A DNA stretch of 7,590 bases from Pirellulaceae bacterium (lineage in GTDB: Bacteria; Planctomycetota; Planctomycetia; Pirellulales; Pirellulaceae). The stretch spans positions 1-7,590 of the forward strand of contig JAKVBZ010000150.1 in NCBI GenBank assembly GCA_022448645.1, read 5' to 3'. The position numbers were made by a program, and so were the translations under genes. Shown piece after piece: positions 1-7,590 of this stretch; within the stretch, counting starts at the first letter, position 1, and each line of letters starts with the position of its first letter. The notes under the pieces are model-generated. The model was given only the letters and a program-made list of their open reading frames with translations. It was not told where the DNA came from and did no database searches.

Positions 1-2811
1 CAGTCGGGAGTCGAAGACATCTCCGCCGGAATGGGAGTCACCAGGAGCGACTTTGATCGCGACGGATGGATGGATCTCTACGTCAGCAACATGTTCTCGT
101 CTGCCGGCAACCGCATCGCCTACCAGCGGACATTTAAACCGCGCGCTGCCGACGAAGTACGTTCGTTGTTTCAAAGGCACGCACGTGGCAACACCTTGTT
201 TCGAAACACGGGCAGAAGTGGTTCGTCACCCTTTTCTTTTGTGGATGTCAGCCAACAACATGGTGTTACGATGGGACGCTGGGCCTGGTCGTCTCAATTC
301 GCAGATTTGAATAATGACGGATGGGATGATTTGCTGGTGGCCAATGGCTACATCACAGGGAATCACCCCAATGATTTGTGAAGCTTTTACTGGCGGCAGG
401 TCGTGTCGCAATCGCCTCTTCATTCCCGACAGCACCCTACGATGCGGAGAAAGTACAGCGATGCATGGGACGCATTGAGCCATTTGCTGCAATCTGGCCG
501 AAGTTTTAGCGGACACGAACGCAATTGCTGTTTTTTGAACCTGGGGAACATGCCGGGCGCTGGCGCCCAGTTTGCCGATACATCCGCAACCAGCGGATTC
601 GACTTTCCCGATGACGCCCGTGGACTGGCGCTGGTCGACTGGGACCAAGATGGTGATCTGGACGTCTGGACCAGCAACCGTACGGGCCCGACGGTACGAT
701 TCTTGCGAAACAATCTCGACCAAGAAGCGAACTATTTGTCCATTAAACTCGAAGGTCGCTCGGGAAACCGCGATGCCATCGGAGCACGCATCAGCGTCCA
801 TCTTTCCGGCGACGATGAAACGGGTTCTCCATTGACGCGAACGCTTCGCGCAGGTTCGGCCTACCTCTCACAATCCAGCAAGTGGCTACATTTTGGCCTG
901 GAACCGCAGTCCGTTGTCGCTCGCTGTGTCGTCCGCTGGCCCAATGGCCAGGAGGAAGACTTTTCCGGTATCGATTTGCAAACCAGCCGACGATACGTGC
1001 TGCGTCAGTCAACTTCTGTCGCAGTGTCGTGGACAACATCTGCACGCTCGCTAGCCGTGTCCCCGACGCCGTCACCCGAGCCGCCTACCAACGCCGCCGC
1101 CGTCCGTCTCTTCAGTCGGCCGCTCATGCCCAAAATAAATTACCAAGACTTCACAGGCCAAACCATGGCGTTGGACAAATCCGTGGGGCAACCGATGCTT
1201 GTCAGTCTTTGGGCTACTTGGTGTTCACCCTGCATTCGCGAATTCACCGAGTGGTCGAATCATGAGCGGGAGATTAGAGATGCGGGTCTTCAGATTATCG
1301 CACTGAGTGTCGACCAATTGGGCACGGCAGCAGCCAGTGACGAGGCAGTGCAACCGCAAGAAGTCCTGCAAAAGATTGATTTTCCTTACGTCTCCGGTTG
1401 GGCAACCACCGAACTGGTCCAACAATTCGACCTCGTACAAAAAGCTGTTTTACAGCGAGATCGTCCGTTACCCTTGCCAGTCAATTTTTTGTTGGATGCG
1501 GAAGGTCGATTGGCCATCCTCTACAAAGGCCCCGTGGGCCTGCAACGTTTGGTCACCGACGTCAAGTCGCTCAACATCCGGCCCGACGCATCCCGCCAGT
1601 TGGCGTTACCGTTCGCCGGTCGTTGGCTTCATCCGCCAGCGCCCACCAGTATGTCGCGCAGGACGGTCCGGCAATTGGGAGAAATGGGACAAGTTGAACT
1701 CGCTATTCGCTATGCTCGTCGTCTCGAGCGGCAAAGCCAACAGTCTACCGTCGCCAACGATCCGCCAGCTGCGCTGGACCGCACCGAACTGGCCAACGTG
1801 TTCGCGACGCTGGCAGACACGCTGCGTGAACGGGACCACCTGGATAAAGCGTTAGAGAACTACCGGCACGCATTGACCTACGACACCAATCACAAGCGAT
1901 GTCACCTTGCCTTGGGAGAGATGTTAGCCCAAGCAGGAAATCTCGACGACGCCGCACGTTACTTCGAACGTGCTTTGGATAACCACCCGAATGATCCCGA
2001 AGTATTGAGCAATCTAGGCGTGATGCGGATGCGAAAGGGACAAGTACAGGAGGCGCGCCTCTTGTTTGAGCAGGCTCTCCAGGCGCGCGCCGGAGATCCC
2101 GACATCTTAAAGAACCTGGCAACGGCGAATTTACGTCAAGGAAAAATTGACGACGCGGCGTCGCAACTGGAATCGGTGCTCCACATGCGGCCTGACGATC
2201 CCGGTGCGCTGTACAACATGGCATATATTCGCATGGCGCAGCAACGGCCTGCGGACGCCGAGGCGATCTACCGGCAGTTCCTCCAGATTGAGCCGGATGA
2301 TGCCCAAGCCTGGAACAGTCTAGGTGTTGCCTGTTTGCGACAAGACAAAGCCAATCTGGCGCGCGAATACTTTGAGAAAGCGTTAACGCTCGACACCCAT
2401 TTGAGCTCAGCTCGGCTCCAAATGGGACTGCTGTTGAGAGACGAAGGTGATACCCGAGAAGCTGCCGCACATTTCCGGGAATTGCTGGAACACACGCCAG
2501 GCTCAGCAGAAGCTGCATCCGCTGCACTGGAACTGGCTTGGATCTTGTCCACACATCCAGACGCGGACGTCCGAGACCCGGATTTGGCCTTGAAGCTAGC
2601 CGAACGAATATGCGAAGCACATCAATACCGATCGGCACGTGCCTTAGAGGCACTTGCAGCCGCACATGCCGCAGCGGGCCAATTTGATCAGGCCCAAGCT
2701 GCAGCAGAAAAGTTACTCCAGCTGGCTCGCGAACAGGACAGTCCACAGCTCATCGCACGCGTCGAGGCACACATCGTAAGATTTCGTGAAGGACTTTTAG
2801 TGGAACCGTAG
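1..2811 (+). CDS. CRTAC1-like FG-GAP/ASPIC-UnbV protein fused to thioredoxin-like domain and TPRs; probable selenoprotein with in-frame UGA (5' partial)
   Basis: The frame is open from base 1, so the N-terminus, presumably with an export signal, lies outside the window. It runs to TAG at 2809-2811 (936 visible residues), interrupted only by TGA at codon 127 (379-381). Counted in window codons: FG-GAP/integrin-like calcium-binding motifs at about 17-32 (DFDRDGWMDLYVSN), 98-115 (DLNNDGWDDLLVANG) and about 213-227 (DWDQDGDLDVW); an ASPIC/UnbV domain at about 244-334; a Pro/Thr/Ser/Ala-rich linker at about 338-369; a TlpA/redoxin-like domain at about 380-527 with W-C-S-P-C at nt 1219-1233; then seven successive 34-residue TPRs and two looser ones at about 595-912. 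The peptide before the TGA (NGYITGNHPNDL) and the one after it (SFYWRQVVSQSP) join smoothly as one family segment, so I annotate a single CDS with Sec at codon 127. An alternative is a split gene with a GTG start at 403, but that start would fall within the FG-GAP region and has no signal peptide and no well-placed ribosome site. FG-GAP propellers and TPRs usually mediate protein or ligand binding; the thioredoxin fold suggests extracytoplasmic thiol chemistry. The substrate is unknown. The domain calls are firm; Sec decoding is an inference. Confidence 0.85.
379..381 (+). other. In-frame UGA, probable selenocysteine codon
   Basis: TGA sits in the same frame as at least 126 upstream and 809 downstream sense codons. 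The local peptide reads NDL-U-SFYWRQVV. No frameshift or second stop is present and family motifs continue on both sides, which fits recoding better than decay. TGA also serves as a normal stop in this genome (6544-6546 ends the nitrilase gene), so a general UGA reassignment is unlikely and a local signal would be needed. A nonsense mutation or a base-call error remains possible. Confidence 0.72.
393..409 (+). promoter_or_regulatory. Candidate bacterial SECIS hairpin
   Basis: Directly visible stem: GCGGCA (393-398) pairs with TGTCGC (404-409), six pairs including one G-U (396/406). The five-base loop GGTCG (399-403) has G at its first two positions. The loop begins 18 nt after the TGA. Bacterial SECIS elements lie within the coding region about 15-40 nt after UGA, with a short stem and a G among the first loop bases, recognised by SelB. 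From memory, the E. coli fdhF element has a GCAGGTC core at nearly the same distance from its UGA; here GCAGGTC spans 396-402. A wider pairing of GGCG (392-395) with CGCC (413-416) is an alternative fold. Binding by SelB is inferred. Confidence 0.68.
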
Positions 2812-2986: not shown

Positions 2987-5677
2987 ATGAAACGTATCAC
3001 TACAGCGATTTTTACTGTCAGCTTAATTTTCGTAGCGCCTGCCGGTGCAGATACCGTCGCACTCTGGTTATTTGATGACCCTGCTGGACTGCCCATCGCA
3101 CATGATTCCAGCGGCAACGGCTACCATCTGACACTGGGCCCTGACGCAACAATCGTTGCAGGTGGACAATTCGGTGGAGCGTTGGATGCCGATGCAACCA
3201 ACGAAGATGGCCTGGGCGCGTTTCGCTACCGGGCAGAAAAACCCCTCAACCCTGGTGACGAAGATTGGACGTTGGAATGTTGGCTGAAAGCCAAGCCGGG
3301 AATGGTCGCCGACAACCGAATCTGGGGGCTGTCCGGAGTCAACTACATCGATTATGGACGCGGCGATTCCCTGCAGGGATTGTTCGTGGCCAGCCGGTAT
3401 CTGCCGCTTGACGGGGTGGAAAGCTGGAACAAACCGACTGGTGACTTACAGGCAGACAACCAGTTTCATCACTTTGCCGTGGTCTACGATTCGACTGCGG
3501 AACAGCTCCGACACTACTTTAATGGACAGTTGCAGTTCACGGCCCCCGGCAAGTGGAAGGACGTTCCAAGCGGAAAAGCACCCTACGCAAACGTCATCAT
3601 GCCACCGCATTATCCGATGCTGCAAATAGGTTGCCGCGACGCGTACCAACAGTGGAATCATCGAGAAATTCATCAACACGACCGCCACATGAAAAAATTT
3701 CAGGGCTACATCGACGAGATGCGTTTCTCTGATGAAGTTGTTTACCATTCCGATTTTACCCCACCCCCTTCGTTCGCACGGCCCACCATTCACGTTTGGC
3801 CGTCAAAGATCAGTTTGGTCGCGACCCAAGAAGAGCTACCTTCGTCACTTCGAGCATATTTTGCGATCTGTGCGACGGGACGAGCAAGTACTCAGGCGAA
3901 AATCGTTCCTGACAAACCGTGGCTGCAGGTCACTTCCCTTAGCGGTTCCTCCAAAACGGCAGAGGGCTACACTCACGCCACGATCGTCAACACGTCAACA
4001 CTCGCCACTGGAAAACACACAGCAACGTTAACGGTAATCACAGATTCAAAAAACATTGAAGTGCCGATGACTGTGACCGTTCTGGGAACCAAAGATGTGA
4101 TCGAGGTAGGCGATCGAAAACAGTTATTCATCGACGAACGTTTTATTGCCAGCCAAACGAATGTGAAGCTGCATACCAACCCACCTGTCAAAATGGGGCC
4201 ACTCATCGAAAACGCCCATTATCCTCGCAACATCGTTTACCTCGAGGATCAGAAGGTGTGGCGCATGTATTTGGCCCCTTGGTCGAATTTGGAACGTGCC
4301 GAGTCAACTGATGGAATCCATTGGAAACGATTTGGACAAGGAGAAATTGTCTACGAATCCGAGCAAGAACCGGGCAAACTGATCCCACTCAATTTTGCTG
4401 CCACCGTCATGCTCGATCGACAGGACATTCCTGAGCGTCGCTTTAAGGCCTTTATGGAAGTAACGACTCATAGCCTGGACGCAGACGGGTATGAGATCGC
4501 CTCCAATCAAGGAAAAGAGAACAAGCGTTCCTTGGCTGGCGTCTATGCCATGTATTCGTCGGATGGGCTACGGTTCAAAGTTTCTGGACGGGTGTTACCG
4601 ATATTGCCTGAGTTCGTGTCCTTTGCTCCCCAATGGGATCCCAACATCGACAAATATGTTTCCTATTTTCGTTGCGAAAACGCGGGTGTGCCAGGAATCA
4701 CAGCTGTGCAAGGCTGTCAATTCTTTTACCACTACGGATTCTCTTACGAACAGCCCGAAAAACTCGTCACGGCGGTAGCACCGGACACGATGGGTCACCC
4801 CGGCTTCGAGAATTTACGTTCGGTCGCACGCATCGAGGTCGACGATTTGCTGCAACCGTGGCCAACTTCTCCCGACGCGGAAGAAACCACGATGTATGCC
4901 ACCAGCCAACAAGTTCCGATGGTGTTTACGGCTGACCATTGGGATGGCTTTGCCGATTACTATGTGCATTCGACCATGGTCTATCCGTATGCCGAAAACG
5001 TTTACTTAATGTTTCCTACTTACTTTCGTCACTTCCATCCCTCTCGACAGCCCTACTTTCACGGCTTCGACGATGCGAACGGACCACTGGAAACAGTTCT
5101 GGCTGTCAGCCGCGATGGCAAGAATTGGAATCGGCTCGACCGCAAAGCCTATGTGGAACTAGGACGAAATGACGAGTGGGATCGAGGTAGAGCCATGCTG
5201 GGATTGGGAATGGTTCGACATGGAAACAATCTGTACCAGTACTATTGGGGTGGTCCGACACTCCATGATTCGCTGATATTGCGCAAGGATTTGCCGGAAC
5301 CCAAAAACAAATTCGGAGGTATTGGTTACGTCAAGCAGCGTTTGGACGGATTCGTCTCGGCCGACGTCGACTATCAAGGGGGCTCCCTCACGACCCCACC
5401 GATTCGCTTTTCGGGCAATCGGTTACAAATCAATCACAAGTGTGGCGGACAAGGAACGATTTTCGTCGAACTGCGCGATGCGAACGGAGTGCCACTGCCA
5501 GGCTTTACCCTAGGCGACTGTGAAGAAGTAGCTGGCGACGATGTTGCTTGGGAAATCCGCTGGCGTGGTAGCGCGGATATTTCTCAGTTTGCCGGACAAC
5601 CAATTCGACTACATTTCAAGATGCGGCATGCGAAACTATACGCATTTCAGTTCGTACACACCAACAAGGATGAATAA
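2987..5677 (+). CDS. Secreted LamG-domain protein with Ig-like domain and GH32/43- or sialidase-like beta-propeller
   Basis: 896 residues from ATG. The N-terminus has two basic residues, a hydrophobic core and a likely signal peptidase site near residue 21 (PAGA|DTVA), so the product is probably exported. A LamG/concanavalin-like domain spans about 22-260 (starts VALWLFDDPAG, includes WTLECWLKAKPG and ends YIDEMRFSDEVVY). An Ig/BACON-like beta domain covers about 267-366. A propeller-like region spans about 373-770, opening with RKQLFIDERFIAS and carrying Asp-box-like S-x-D-G-x-x-W/F motifs at 440-446, 524-530 and 708-714. A C-terminal beta-sandwich (about 785-892, from RLDGFVSADVDYQGG to KLYAFQF) resembles a tail I recall from many planctomycete exported proteins. 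The fold suggests carbohydrate binding or hydrolysis, but I cannot assign catalytic acids, so activity and substrate are open; a purely binding role is possible. It lies 41 nt upstream of a nitrilase-family gene and has a convergent paralogue at 6713-7590. Confidence 0.88.
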   Translation: MKRITTAIFTVSLIFVAPAGADTVALWLFDDPAGLPIAHDSSGNGYHLTLGPDATIVAGGQFGGALDADATNEDGLGAFRYRAEKPLNPGDEDWTLECWLKAKPGMVADNRIWGLSGVNYIDYGRGDSLQGLFVASRYLPLDGVESWNKPTGDLQADNQFHHFAVVYDSTAEQLRHYFNGQLQFTAPGKWKDVPSGKAPYANVIMPPHYPMLQIGCRDAYQQWNHREIHQHDRHMKKFQGYIDEMRFSDEVVYHSDFTPPPSFARPTIHVWPSKISLVATQEELPSSLRAYFAICATGRASTQAKIVPDKPWLQVTSLSGSSKTAEGYTHATIVNTSTLATGKHTATLTVITDSKNIEVPMTVTVLGTKDVIEVGDRKQLFIDERFIASQTNVKLHTNPPVKMGPLIENAHYPRNIVYLEDQKVWRMYLAPWSNLERAESTDGIHWKRFGQGEIVYESEQEPGKLIPLNFAATVMLDRQDIPERRFKAFMEVTTHSLDADGYEIASNQGKENKRSLAGVYAMYSSDGLRFKVSGRVLPILPEFVSFAPQWDPNIDKYVSYFRCENAGVPGITAVQGCQFFYHYGFSYEQPEKLVTAVAPDTMGHPGFENLRSVARIEVDDLLQPWPTSPDAEETTMYATSQQVPMVFTADHWDGFADYYVHSTMVYPYAENVYLMFPTYFRHFHPSRQPYFHGFDDANGPLETVLAVSRDGKNWNRLDRKAYVELGRNDEWDRGRAMLGLGMVRHGNNLYQYYWGGPTLHDSLILRKDLPEPKNKFGGIGYVKQRLDGFVSADVDYQGGSLTTPPIRFSGNRLQINHKCGGQGTIFVELRDANGVPLPGFTLGDCEEVAGDDVAWEIRWRGSADISQFAGQPIRLHFKMRHAKLYAFQFVHTNKDE

Positions 5678-5718: not shown

Positions 5719-6546
5719 GTGAGAATTGCCACGTGCCAGTTTCCCATCTCCGCCAACATTCGCCGCAACACTACCGCCCTGGCGAACCAATTGGTTGCGG
5801 CAGCCAAACAGGGTGCTCAGGTAGTACACTTTCCGGAATGTGCCTTGTCGGGTTATGCAGGCACAGACTTTCAGGATTGGTCGCGATTCGATTGGGATCT
5901 ACTGCTCGAAAAGAGCCGCCACATCGTCGACCTGGCAAAGAGGCATCGAGTCTGGTTGCTATTCGGTAGCAGCCATCGCTTACGCCGCCATCTTCCTCAC
6001 AACAGTGTTTATGTAGTGAGCCCCTCCGGTCGAATCGTCGACCGCTACGACAAAAGATTTTGCACCCGCAGGGATCTTCAGTATTATTCTCCTGGTAACC
6101 ATGCGTGCAGATTTCGAATTGGCAAGCTTCATTGTGCGGTTACCATTTGCCATGATGTGCGTTACCCAGAGCTATTTCGAGATCATAAGCGGTCGGGTGT
6201 GAACATCGTTTTTCAATCGTTTTACAATGCCAGGGCCGAGGGCAGAACAGACCATTCGGATATCATGCATGCTACCGTACAAGGACATTCCGGTTCGAAT
6301 TACATGTGGAGTAGCGTGGCCAATGCGTGCGGCTACTATCAATCATGGCCGAGTATCTTTGTATTGCCTAACGGTGCGATCTCCGGACATTTGCGTCAAC
6401 ATCGCAGCGGCATACTCATCAGCGAAGTCCACCGCAACGAAAAATACCGCGATGCGTCGGAGTTTCGAGACATGGCGATGCAAGGAGTCTTGCACAGCGG
6501 CAAAAAGGTGAACGAAGCCCGTAGTCGCAACCGGACGGAACTATGA
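5719..6546 (+). CDS. Carbon-nitrogen hydrolase (nitrilase superfamily)
   Basis: 275 residues, a normal length for a single-domain CN hydrolase. The start is GTG: an in-frame TGA lies at 5713-5715, two codons upstream, leaving no room for a longer protein, and MRIATCQFPIS is a typical superfamily N-terminus. An AGGTGA sequence at 5710-5715 may serve as the ribosome site, though it is close to the start. The catalytic triad is visible: Glu40 in HFPECALSGY, Lys112 in RYDKRF and Cys144 in VTICHDVRYPE. The family cleaves amide, nitrile or carbamoyl C-N bonds through a cysteine acyl-enzyme. There is no signal peptide, so it should act in the cytoplasm. The 41-nt gap from the secreted LamG gene on the same strand suggests co-transcription, and the cytoplasmic amidase may act on a product imported after extracellular degradation (inference). 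The specific substrate cannot be named. The stop is TGA, and reading past it gives only nine codons before TAA. Confidence 0.9.
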   Translation: MRIATCQFPISANIRRNTTALANQLVAAAKQGAQVVHFPECALSGYAGTDFQDWSRFDWDLLLEKSRHIVDLAKRHRVWLLFGSSHRLRRHLPHNSVYVVSPSGRIVDRYDKRFCTRRDLQYYSPGNHACRFRIGKLHCAVTICHDVRYPELFRDHKRSGVNIVFQSFYNARAEGRTDHSDIMHATVQGHSGSNYMWSSVANACGYYQSWPSIFVLPNGAISGHLRQHRSGILISEVHRNEKYRDASEFRDMAMQGVLHSGKKVNEARSRNRTEL

Positions 6547-6712: not shown

Positions 6713-7590
6713 CTAATCCGATTCGAATTGAAAAGCATACAGCTTAGCAGCGCGCATCTTAAAATGTAGTCGAATCGGTCGTCCAGCCAACTGAGAAATA
6801 TCCGCACTACCACGCCAGCGTACTTCCCACCGTACGTCATTGCAGGTGATCTCTTCGCAGTCGGCCAACTCGTAACCTCGAATCGGTTGATTGTTCAAAT
6901 CTCGCAGTTCGACGAAAATAGTACCTTGTCCGCCCGCGTTTTGATTCAATATCAATCGCCGCCCACTGAACACCAGTGGTGTCGTCGTCAGTGAACCTCC
7001 CTGGTAGTCCGCGTCCATCGACACAAACCCATCTAGTCTCTGCCGGGTCCCGAAAATTCCCAACGAAGCATAAGCCCACTTCTCAAGATCGCCATCCAAC
7101 GGATACTCGTCGCGCAAGGGTACCGTGTCGTGAAGCTGAGGATTAGCCCAATAATAGCTGTAAAGATAATTACCGACTTTGATGATCCCTCCTCCCATCG
7201 AAGTCCGGCCCCGATCGACCTCATCCATTAAACCGAGCGGTATATACTCTTTGCGGTCCAAGCGATTCCAGGTAACACCATCGCGACTGAACGCGATCAC
7301 GGTTTGCAAAGGACCATTCAGATCTGCGTATCCTGGAAACCAGGGCTGCCGTGACGGGTGAAAATGACGTAGTGTTTTGAGGTACATAATGTGTACGTCT
7401 TCGGCCCAGGGATATTGCGCCGGAAAGCAACTATAGAAGTCCTTGAACCCATCCCACTTGTCCGCGCTGAGTGCCATGTTCACGTTGCGGGCGGTCGCGT
7501 ACGAGGTGGAACCTTCGTAAGCGGATGGAAAAACACCTTCGGTCCACGGTTGTAACAAATCATCGGCAGTCAGTCTGGCGAATGAGCGCA
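6713..7590 (-). CDS. Secreted beta-propeller protein, paralogue of the LamG gene (C-terminal part, 5' truncated by window edge)
   Basis: The frame is open to the right edge: codons before the TTG at 7558 read RSFARLTADD, matching RSVARIEVDD in the paralogue (its residues 611-620). The true start is therefore outside the window and TTG 7558 is not a start. About 292 residues are visible, ending at TAG (6715-6713). They match residues 611-892 of the 2987-5677 product along their length, including DDLLQPW, RHFHPSRQP, an Asp-box-like S-R-D-G-V-T-W and a nearly identical C-terminal sandwich (RLDGFVS, YQGGSLTT, GGQGTIFVELRD, RWRGSADISQ, KLYAFQF). The main difference is a longer segment before the sandwich (around DEYPLDGDLEKWAYASLGIFG). 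By eye the last 110 residues are about two-thirds identical, while synonymous positions differ widely, which indicates an old duplication. The N-terminal LamG and Ig-like domains are expected upstream but cannot be seen. Function is as uncertain as for the paralogue. Confidence 0.85.
   Translation of the reverse strand, partial: RSFARLTADDLLQPWTEGVFPSAYEGSTSYATARNVNMALSADKWDGFKDFYSCFPAQYPWAEDVHIMYLKTLRHFHPSRQPWFPGYADLNGPLQTVIAFSRDGVTWNRLDRKEYIPLGLMDEVDRGRTSMGGGIIKVGNYLYSYYWANPQLHDTVPLRDEYPLDGDLEKWAYASLGIFGTRQRLDGFVSMDADYQGGSLTTTPLVFSGRRLILNQNAGGQGTIFVELRDLNNQPIRGYELADCEEITCNDVRWEVRWRGSADISQLAGRPIRLHFKMRAAKLYAFQFESD

What the first reader, a model, noticed from the sequence alone, without database searches (positions are those of the whole stretch)
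379..409. Putative selenocysteine in a CRTAC1-like FG-GAP/ASPIC-UnbV protein
Seen: a single in-frame TGA in a long intact frame, family-like sequence on both sides (NGYITGNHPNDL before, SFYWRQVVSQSP after), and a hairpin at 393-409 with a GGUCG loop 18 nt after the UGA. Known: bacterial SECIS elements have this position, small size and loop G, and the E. coli fdhF element carries a GCAGGUC core as here. Inference: UGA is decoded as Sec, adding an exported beta-propeller family to the bacterial selenoproteome. I am not aware of a characterised selenoprotein of this type.
Basis: partly seen in the sequence, partly recalled or inferred. Interest (0 to 1): 0.92.

Follow-up and report, generated by a model that had tools for sequence, protein, structure and literature searches.

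The report
Selenocysteine in bacterial CRTAC1-like propeller proteins
An apparent stop codon in this bacterial gene very probably inserts the rare amino acid selenocysteine into a propeller-shaped protein, and the gene belongs to a large selenoprotein family whose members are often cut short in databases.

Summary
Frame 1-2811 carries one in-frame TGA (379-381) with a hairpin 17 nt behind it. Of 80 related loci from other genomes, 79 have TGA at this codon. The hairpin is kept by compensatory changes: all six pairs form at 123 of 152 distinct UGA sites, at 0.5% of 3039 control windows and at none of 21 sense-codon sites. SelA and SelB are each found in 44 of 50 host genomes searched. Of 120 listed database hits, 96 begin just behind the UGA. 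The fold of a relative is CRTAC1. Sec lies at a helix start and goes with an intact CxxC in the fused TlpA-like domain (78 of 79 Sec copies, 16 of 119 with another residue). That suggests a redox relay, though the link is not significant after tree correction. Five genomes hold 14-24 copies with a TGA. A 119-family review and text searches show no such family. Not shown: selenium in the protein, its substrate, and Sec genes in the window's own genome, which is not held.

The parts
1..2811 (+). Coding frame (5' end cut by the window edge) of a CRTAC1-like FG-GAP/ASPIC-UnbV/TlpA-like/TPR protein, read through one TGA; 936 residues in the window
   Evidence: translation; Pfam domains
379..381 (+). 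In-frame UGA, proposed Sec codon (residue 127)
   Evidence: TGA at the homologous codon in 79 of 80 loci
393..409 (+). Bacterial SECIS-type hairpin: stem 393-398/404-409, loop 399-403 (GGUCG)
49..339 (+). FG-GAP_3 beta-propeller repeats (residues 17-113)
   Evidence: PF13517
775..975 (+). UnbV_ASPIC domain (residues 259-325)
   Evidence: PF07593
1126..1512 (+). TlpA/ResA-like thioredoxin-fold domain (residues 376-504)
   Evidence: PF00578; PDB profile matches to TlpA 1jfu and ResA are from the family profile A4
1222..1233 (+). CxxC (CSPC) of the thioredoxin-like domain, 281 residues after the Sec
1756..2502 (+). TPR repeats (residues 586-834)

Best explanation
The UGA at 379-381 is read as selenocysteine by the ordinary bacterial SelB/tRNA-Sec route, directed by the hairpin at 393-409. 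The product is a CRTAC1-like beta-propeller, exported by inference from relatives, with an ASPIC domain, a TlpA/ResA-like thioredoxin domain and TPR repeats. Sec stands at the start of a helix in the propeller region. Most likely it is a redox-active selenol kept reduced by the CxxC of the fused thioredoxin-like domain. Conservation of the UGA and of the hairpin, and co-occurrence with SelA and SelB in relatives, are shown. Sec insertion itself, the relay, the export of the window's protein and the substrate are inferred.
For: TGA at the site in 79 of 80 loci found without regard to the codon, none with TAA or TAG. Of the 150 best matches in 199 genomes, 119 hold one TGA, 26 span the site without a stop and 5 do not span it. 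Hairpin: 97.6% of cells paired on 83 sites, against at most 68.4% when slid; all six pairs in 123 of 152 distinct UGA sites, 0.5% of 3039 controls and 0 of 21 sense-codon sites; 33 compensatory cells among those 123. Synonymous bias averages 1.17 bits in 7 conserved columns of codons +1 to +9, against 0.115 in 99 others; GTG in 71 of 71, TCG in 68 of 69. SelA 44 of 50, SelB 44 of 50, tRNA-Sec at 53 bits or more in 38 of 50. In the 199-genome sample 47 of 51 genomes with a TGA copy have SelA, against 89 of 148 others (Fisher 8e-6). UGA is an ordinary stop in the same genes: 31 of 84 end in TGA. AlphaFold of the relative L001: pLDDT 91.3, pTM 0.91, Sec at residue 471 in helix 470-481. CxxC in 78 of 79 Sec copies against 16 of 119 copies with another residue.
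Against: Listed intact relatives have Cys at the site in only 6 of 131, unlike the Sec/Cys exchange usual in selenoproteins. No genome is held for the window, and its hairpin alone does not beat shuffles. Three of 50 host genomes show none of SelA, SelB or a clear tRNA-Sec, and the MAG richest in copies (G006) lacks SelA and SelB; incomplete MAGs are the likely cause but this was not tested. Four of 51 genomes with TGA copies lack a strong SelA match. SelA is common in that phylum anyway (136 of 199). Some serine columns elsewhere have codon bias as high as 1.45 bits. The Sec-CxxC link is not significant after tree correction. The nearby GHERNC cysteine is not constant, so no fixed partner residue is known.
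Confidence: 0.93

Rival explanations
1. The UGA is a true stop and the downstream part is a second protein, started by re-initiation at the GTG 24 nt after it or at another start nearby, as gene callers assume.
For: 96 of 120 listed database proteins begin 3 to 37 residues after the site; GTG at codon +8 in 71 of 71 loci with Val there.
Against: The stop would fall inside one confidently folded unit (pTM 0.91). In 11 of the 123 sites with all six pairs, pair 20/26 is G-C, the codon is GCG (7) or ACG (4), so GTG is lost while the hairpin is kept. TAA and TAG were not seen at the site, and the TGA copies track SelA.
Confidence: 0.04
2. Sequencing or assembly error, or a decayed gene.
For: The window is one short record with no genome held.
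Against: The same TGA stands at the same codon in 79 of 80 loci from many records, in frames that run on past it, with constrained synonymous codons.
Confidence: 0.01
3. UGA is read as another amino acid (code change or suppressor tRNA) in these bacteria.
For: The site tolerates many residues in intact relatives.
Against: UGA is used as an ordinary stop: 31 of 84 family genes end in TGA, as does the window gene at 5719-6546. The six-pair hairpin is found with the UGA and not at 21 sense-codon sites.
Confidence: 0.02
4. Sec is inserted, but serves as a metal ligand or substrate-binding residue, not in a relay with the CxxC domain.
For: No constant Cys partner near the site; acidic FG-GAP motifs; the tree-corrected test of Sec with CxxC has only 4 pairs; 16 of 119 copies without Sec or Cys keep the CxxC.
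Against: CxxC is intact in 78 of 79 Sec copies and in only 16 of 119 copies with another residue, where Ser most often replaces the first Cys.
Confidence: 0.35

Closest known systems
CRTAC1 (cartilage acidic protein 1), murine structure 9etn
   Different: The sequence match of the site region to 9etn covered only the part behind the Sec segment; the Sec codon and the TlpA-like and TPR parts were not seen in it. The structural alignment at the Sec helix itself was not shown.
Bacterial selenoproteins (review PMC13188914, Table 1)
   Same: In-frame UGA, hairpin within the published bacterial limits, SelA/SelB hosts.
   Different: No entry of the 119-family table is named for an FG-GAP, ASPIC/UnbV or CRTAC1 protein; here Sec lies outside the thioredoxin-like domain, in the propeller region.
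TlpA/ResA-like thiol-disulphide oxidoreductases
   Same: The fused domain matches TlpA 1jfu at E 1.8e-14 and ResA, with CxxC in 78 of 79 Sec copies.
   Different: Here it is a domain within a much larger protein; NCBIfam TlpA and ResA models score below their cut-offs.
Intact 'tetratricopeptide repeat' or 'FG-GAP-like' homologues, some named as Acidobacteria or Terriglobales
   Same: Same domains and WRQVV segment.
   Different: Ser, Ala, Gly and others at the site, mostly without the full CxxC; the six-pair hairpin was absent at 21 sense-codon sites, which are other loci.

Membership tests
Bacterial selenoproteins | In-frame UGA conserved across relatives | tested here: met
   79 of 80 loci; 119 of 145 site-spanning rows among the 150 best matches in 199 genomes hold a TGA
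Bacterial selenoproteins | bSECIS: 3-9 nt loop, 4-16 bp stem, G in first two loop positions, 16-37 nt from UGA, MFE at or below -7.5 (PMC13188914, section 5 read) | tested here: met
   Window: 5-nt loop GGUCG, 6 bp, 17 nt, -8.7 kcal/mol for the 45 nt after the UGA. Family: 135 of 152 at or below -7.5 for the 19-nt hairpin, against 1.6% of controls
Bacterial selenoproteins | Sec machinery in the same genome | tested here: inconclusive
   Not testable for the window; in relatives SelA 44/50, SelB 44/50, tRNA-Sec 38/50 at 53 bits or more
Bacterial selenoproteins | Cys at the site in non-Sec relatives | tested here: inconclusive
   Cys in 6 of 131 listed intact proteins; TGC in 8 loci of one divergent clade
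Bacterial selenoproteins | Selenium in the protein | not testable with these tools
   needs 75Se label or mass spectrometry
CRTAC1 / ASPIC-UnbV proteins | FG-GAP propeller plus UnbV_ASPIC domain | tested here: met
   (PF13517, PF07593 over their cut-offs)
CRTAC1 / ASPIC-UnbV proteins | CRTAC1 fold | tested here: met
TlpA/ResA-like domain | Thioredoxin fold with CxxC | tested here: met
   PF00578 at 376-504 and CSPC in the window
Exported protein | Signal peptide or lipobox | tested here: inconclusive
   Window starts inside the gene; many relatives show signal- or lipobox-like N-termini by eye, no predictor was run

The most novel reading that the evidence does not exclude
Planctomycetota, Verrucomicrobiota and some others, several of them from ocean-water samples by their record titles, carry a multi-copy selenoprotein superfamily in which a Sec displayed on a CRTAC1 propeller trades electrons with a thioredoxin domain in the same chain. 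With up to 24 copies with a TGA in one MAG, this one family would place them among the most Sec-rich bacteria known, in a habitat that the 2026 review holds unfavourable to Sec if they live with oxygen, and it would have escaped notice because gene callers tend to shorten each copy.
Probability: 0.5. Interest if true: 0.9.

Novelty: new variant of a known kind. Interest (0 to 1): 0.82.

Why it matters
It would add a large selenoprotein family on a fold (CRTAC1-type propeller) not named in the 2026 inventory of 119 prokaryotic families, in phyla whose names do not occur in that review's text, and it would explain why 96 of 120 listed database proteins start just behind this codon. It also offers a testable partner for the Sec within the same chain, and a bacterial handle on CRTAC1, whose role in animals is, from recall, poorly understood.

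Tried and rejected
Viral contigs: 98 stretches matched a pattern, none encoded a relative. Rfam at gathering scores: no match in the window. The nearby Cys of GHERNC as resolving partner: doubted, because it is Cys in 71 of the 79 UGA copies in which the motif was found (not found in 4 more) and replaced in divergent subfamilies. The Sec-CxxC link on a tree of 203 rows: 4 independent pairs on supported branches, on average 2.3 the same way, 0.0 the other way and 1.7 without difference; too few for significance. A 194-genome sample of the phylum of G016 gave one genome with TGA copies (G016 itself, the centre) and SelA in 9 of 194, so the family is patchy and eight SelA genomes there had no match at E 1e-12. 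The DNA upstream of the truncated database proteins was not seen; that they end at a UGA is inferred. The second structure job was not used.

Papers: PMC13188914: abstract, sections 5, 7 and 10, part 2 of the references, and term searches. PMC4807772: section 17 and passages. PMC12013277, PMC9402790 and PMC9312934: term searches only. All others: search listings.

Full report
OBSERVATION. Frame 1 of the window (1-2811, cut at its 5' end) has a single TGA at 379-381. Pfam finds FG-GAP_3 before it, and UnbV_ASPIC, AhpC-TSA and TPR after it. The hairpin 393-409 is as described. Alone it does not beat shuffles (37 of 200 as good), so the case rests on comparison.

RELATIVES. A protein search listed 120 of 6603 hits. 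Of the 120, 96 begin at query residues 130-164, just behind the UGA, and 24 begin before it. That is what gene callers produce at an in-frame stop, though the DNA of those entries was not seen. Read through the stop, 79 of 80 have TGA at the site and one (L070) has AAC. L032 and L034 hold a second copy and L067 a divergent one, each with TGA. By title the hosts are mainly Planctomycetota and Verrucomicrobiota MAGs, with single ones titled Acidobacteriota, Thermoanaerobaculia and Proteobacteria.

A SUPERFAMILY. In 199 genomes of the phylum of G001 (the genome of L001), 131 had a match at E 0.001. Of the 150 best matches 119 hold one TGA, 26 span the site without a stop and 5 do not span it. The site codon was read in 99 further loci: 79 TGA, 20 other. 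Of these 99, 30 come, 29, and 40 were picked by me, 20 as TGA rows and 20 as non-TGA rows, so this is not an unbiased count. All 20 picked TGA rows have the TGA at the homologous codon, in several subfamilies (DL-U-SFFWRQVV, DT-U-S.YWRHVVAS, DY-U-THFWRQVVAD, DL-U-LPFAEGAV, DG-U-.CLWQAVV, D.-U-S..WRAVVR). Eight of the non-TGA rows have TGC (Cys), with DYCT.FW or DHCT.FW, and form one clade (support 100/100). Copies with a TGA in the match: G001 15 (13 close, 2 divergent); G006 24 of 29 rows; G016 17 of 19, G013 14 of 14, G026 15 of 19, G038 4 of 15; G164 10 of 10, G195 8 of 8, G156 2 of 2. The place of the TGA was checked only in the loci that I fetched. G156 is nearly one contig (9,503,417 bases), so the signal is not confined to fragmented bins.

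THE HAIRPIN. On 83 aligned sites (75 distinct) 97.6% of cells pair, with 10 compensatory cells; sliding the partners gives at most 68.4%. On 152 distinct sites all six pairs form in 123, in 0.5% of 3039 control windows of the same genes, and in none of 21 sites with a sense codon; over all 152 sites 89.6% of cells pair, and the 123 hold 33 compensatory cells. A set of 133 rows chosen with a pairing threshold gives 98.2%. The other 19 have hairpins in other registers, found by a search over registers and so weaker evidence. Seven conserved columns in codons +1 to +9 carry a synonymous bias of 1.17 bits on average, against 0.115 for 99 other conserved columns, of which the highest, a serine, reaches 1.45. 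This argues for selection on the RNA.

MACHINERY. In 50 of the 63 genomes holding the loci: SelA in 44 over cut-off (2 of 14 control genomes), SelB in 44 over cut-off (2 of 14), tRNA-Sec at 53 bits or more in 38 (the gathering score itself is not specific: 5 of 14 controls pass). By my reading of the three tables only G005, G023 and G034 lack all three. G006, richest in copies, shows a tRNA-Sec but no SelA or SelB over cut-off. In the 199-genome sample 47 of 51 genomes with a TGA copy have SelA (E below 1e-60), against 89 of 148 others (Fisher 8e-6); of 8 genomes with only sense-codon matches 4 lack SelA. Genomes share ancestry, so these P values overstate the case. G047, whose copy L070 has Asn at the site, also has SelA and SelB.

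RIVALS. Re-initiation at the common GTG would explain the gene callers' choice, but in 11 of the 123 sites with all six pairs the pair is G-C and the codon GCG or ACG, so the GTG is lost and the pairing kept. UGA remains a stop elsewhere: 31 of 84 of these genes end in TGA.

KNOWN OR NOT. The 2026 review's table of 119 families names no FG-GAP, ASPIC/UnbV, VCBS or CRTAC1 protein. Full-text searches found no paper with UnbV and seleno-, none with FG-GAP and selenocysteine, and two with CRTAC1 and selenocysteine that concern peroxiredoxin 6 by their listings. NCBIfam showed no model specific for it among the best 25 of 40. The library holds open-licence papers only, and the supplementary selenoprotein table of PMC4807772 could not be read, so earlier notice is not excluded. 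That paper, and SelA in 136 of 199 genomes of the phylum sample, show that Sec use by planctomycetes is not itself new.

Noticed in passing
window 2987-5677 (+) and 6713-7588 (-): Two genes facing each other, 59% identical over 288 residues, flank a carbon-nitrogen hydrolase (5719-6546): an inverted duplication. The longer one has a Laminin_G_3 (concanavalin-like) domain in its N-terminal part.
   Followed up: partly
window 376-378 and 382-384; the codons on either side of the UGA in 82 rows: Leu before the UGA is TTG or TTA in 76 of 82 rows, and Ser after it is AGT in 75 of 80, although both lie outside the hairpin. The window itself has TTG and AGC. Unexplained context constraint.
   Followed up: no
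G006:C746:4 and G006:C970:4: In two contigs of one MAG the match begins at base 4, right behind the Sec position, as if assembly broke at the shared hairpin sequence; repeated copies may be undercounted in MAGs.
   Followed up: no
G164:C253, G195:C204: Five and four UGA copies of a divergent subfamily on one contig, a hint of tandem expansion.
   Followed up: no
L151-L158: Eight loci of a divergent clade (D[YH]CT.FW) have TGC at the Sec codon and at most three of the six hairpin pairs; it may be a natural Cys form.
   Followed up: partly
L162-L167: A subfamily with DL-U-LPFAEGAV or similar keeps the UGA but lacks the tryptophan-rich segment; its hairpin sits in another register.
   Followed up: no
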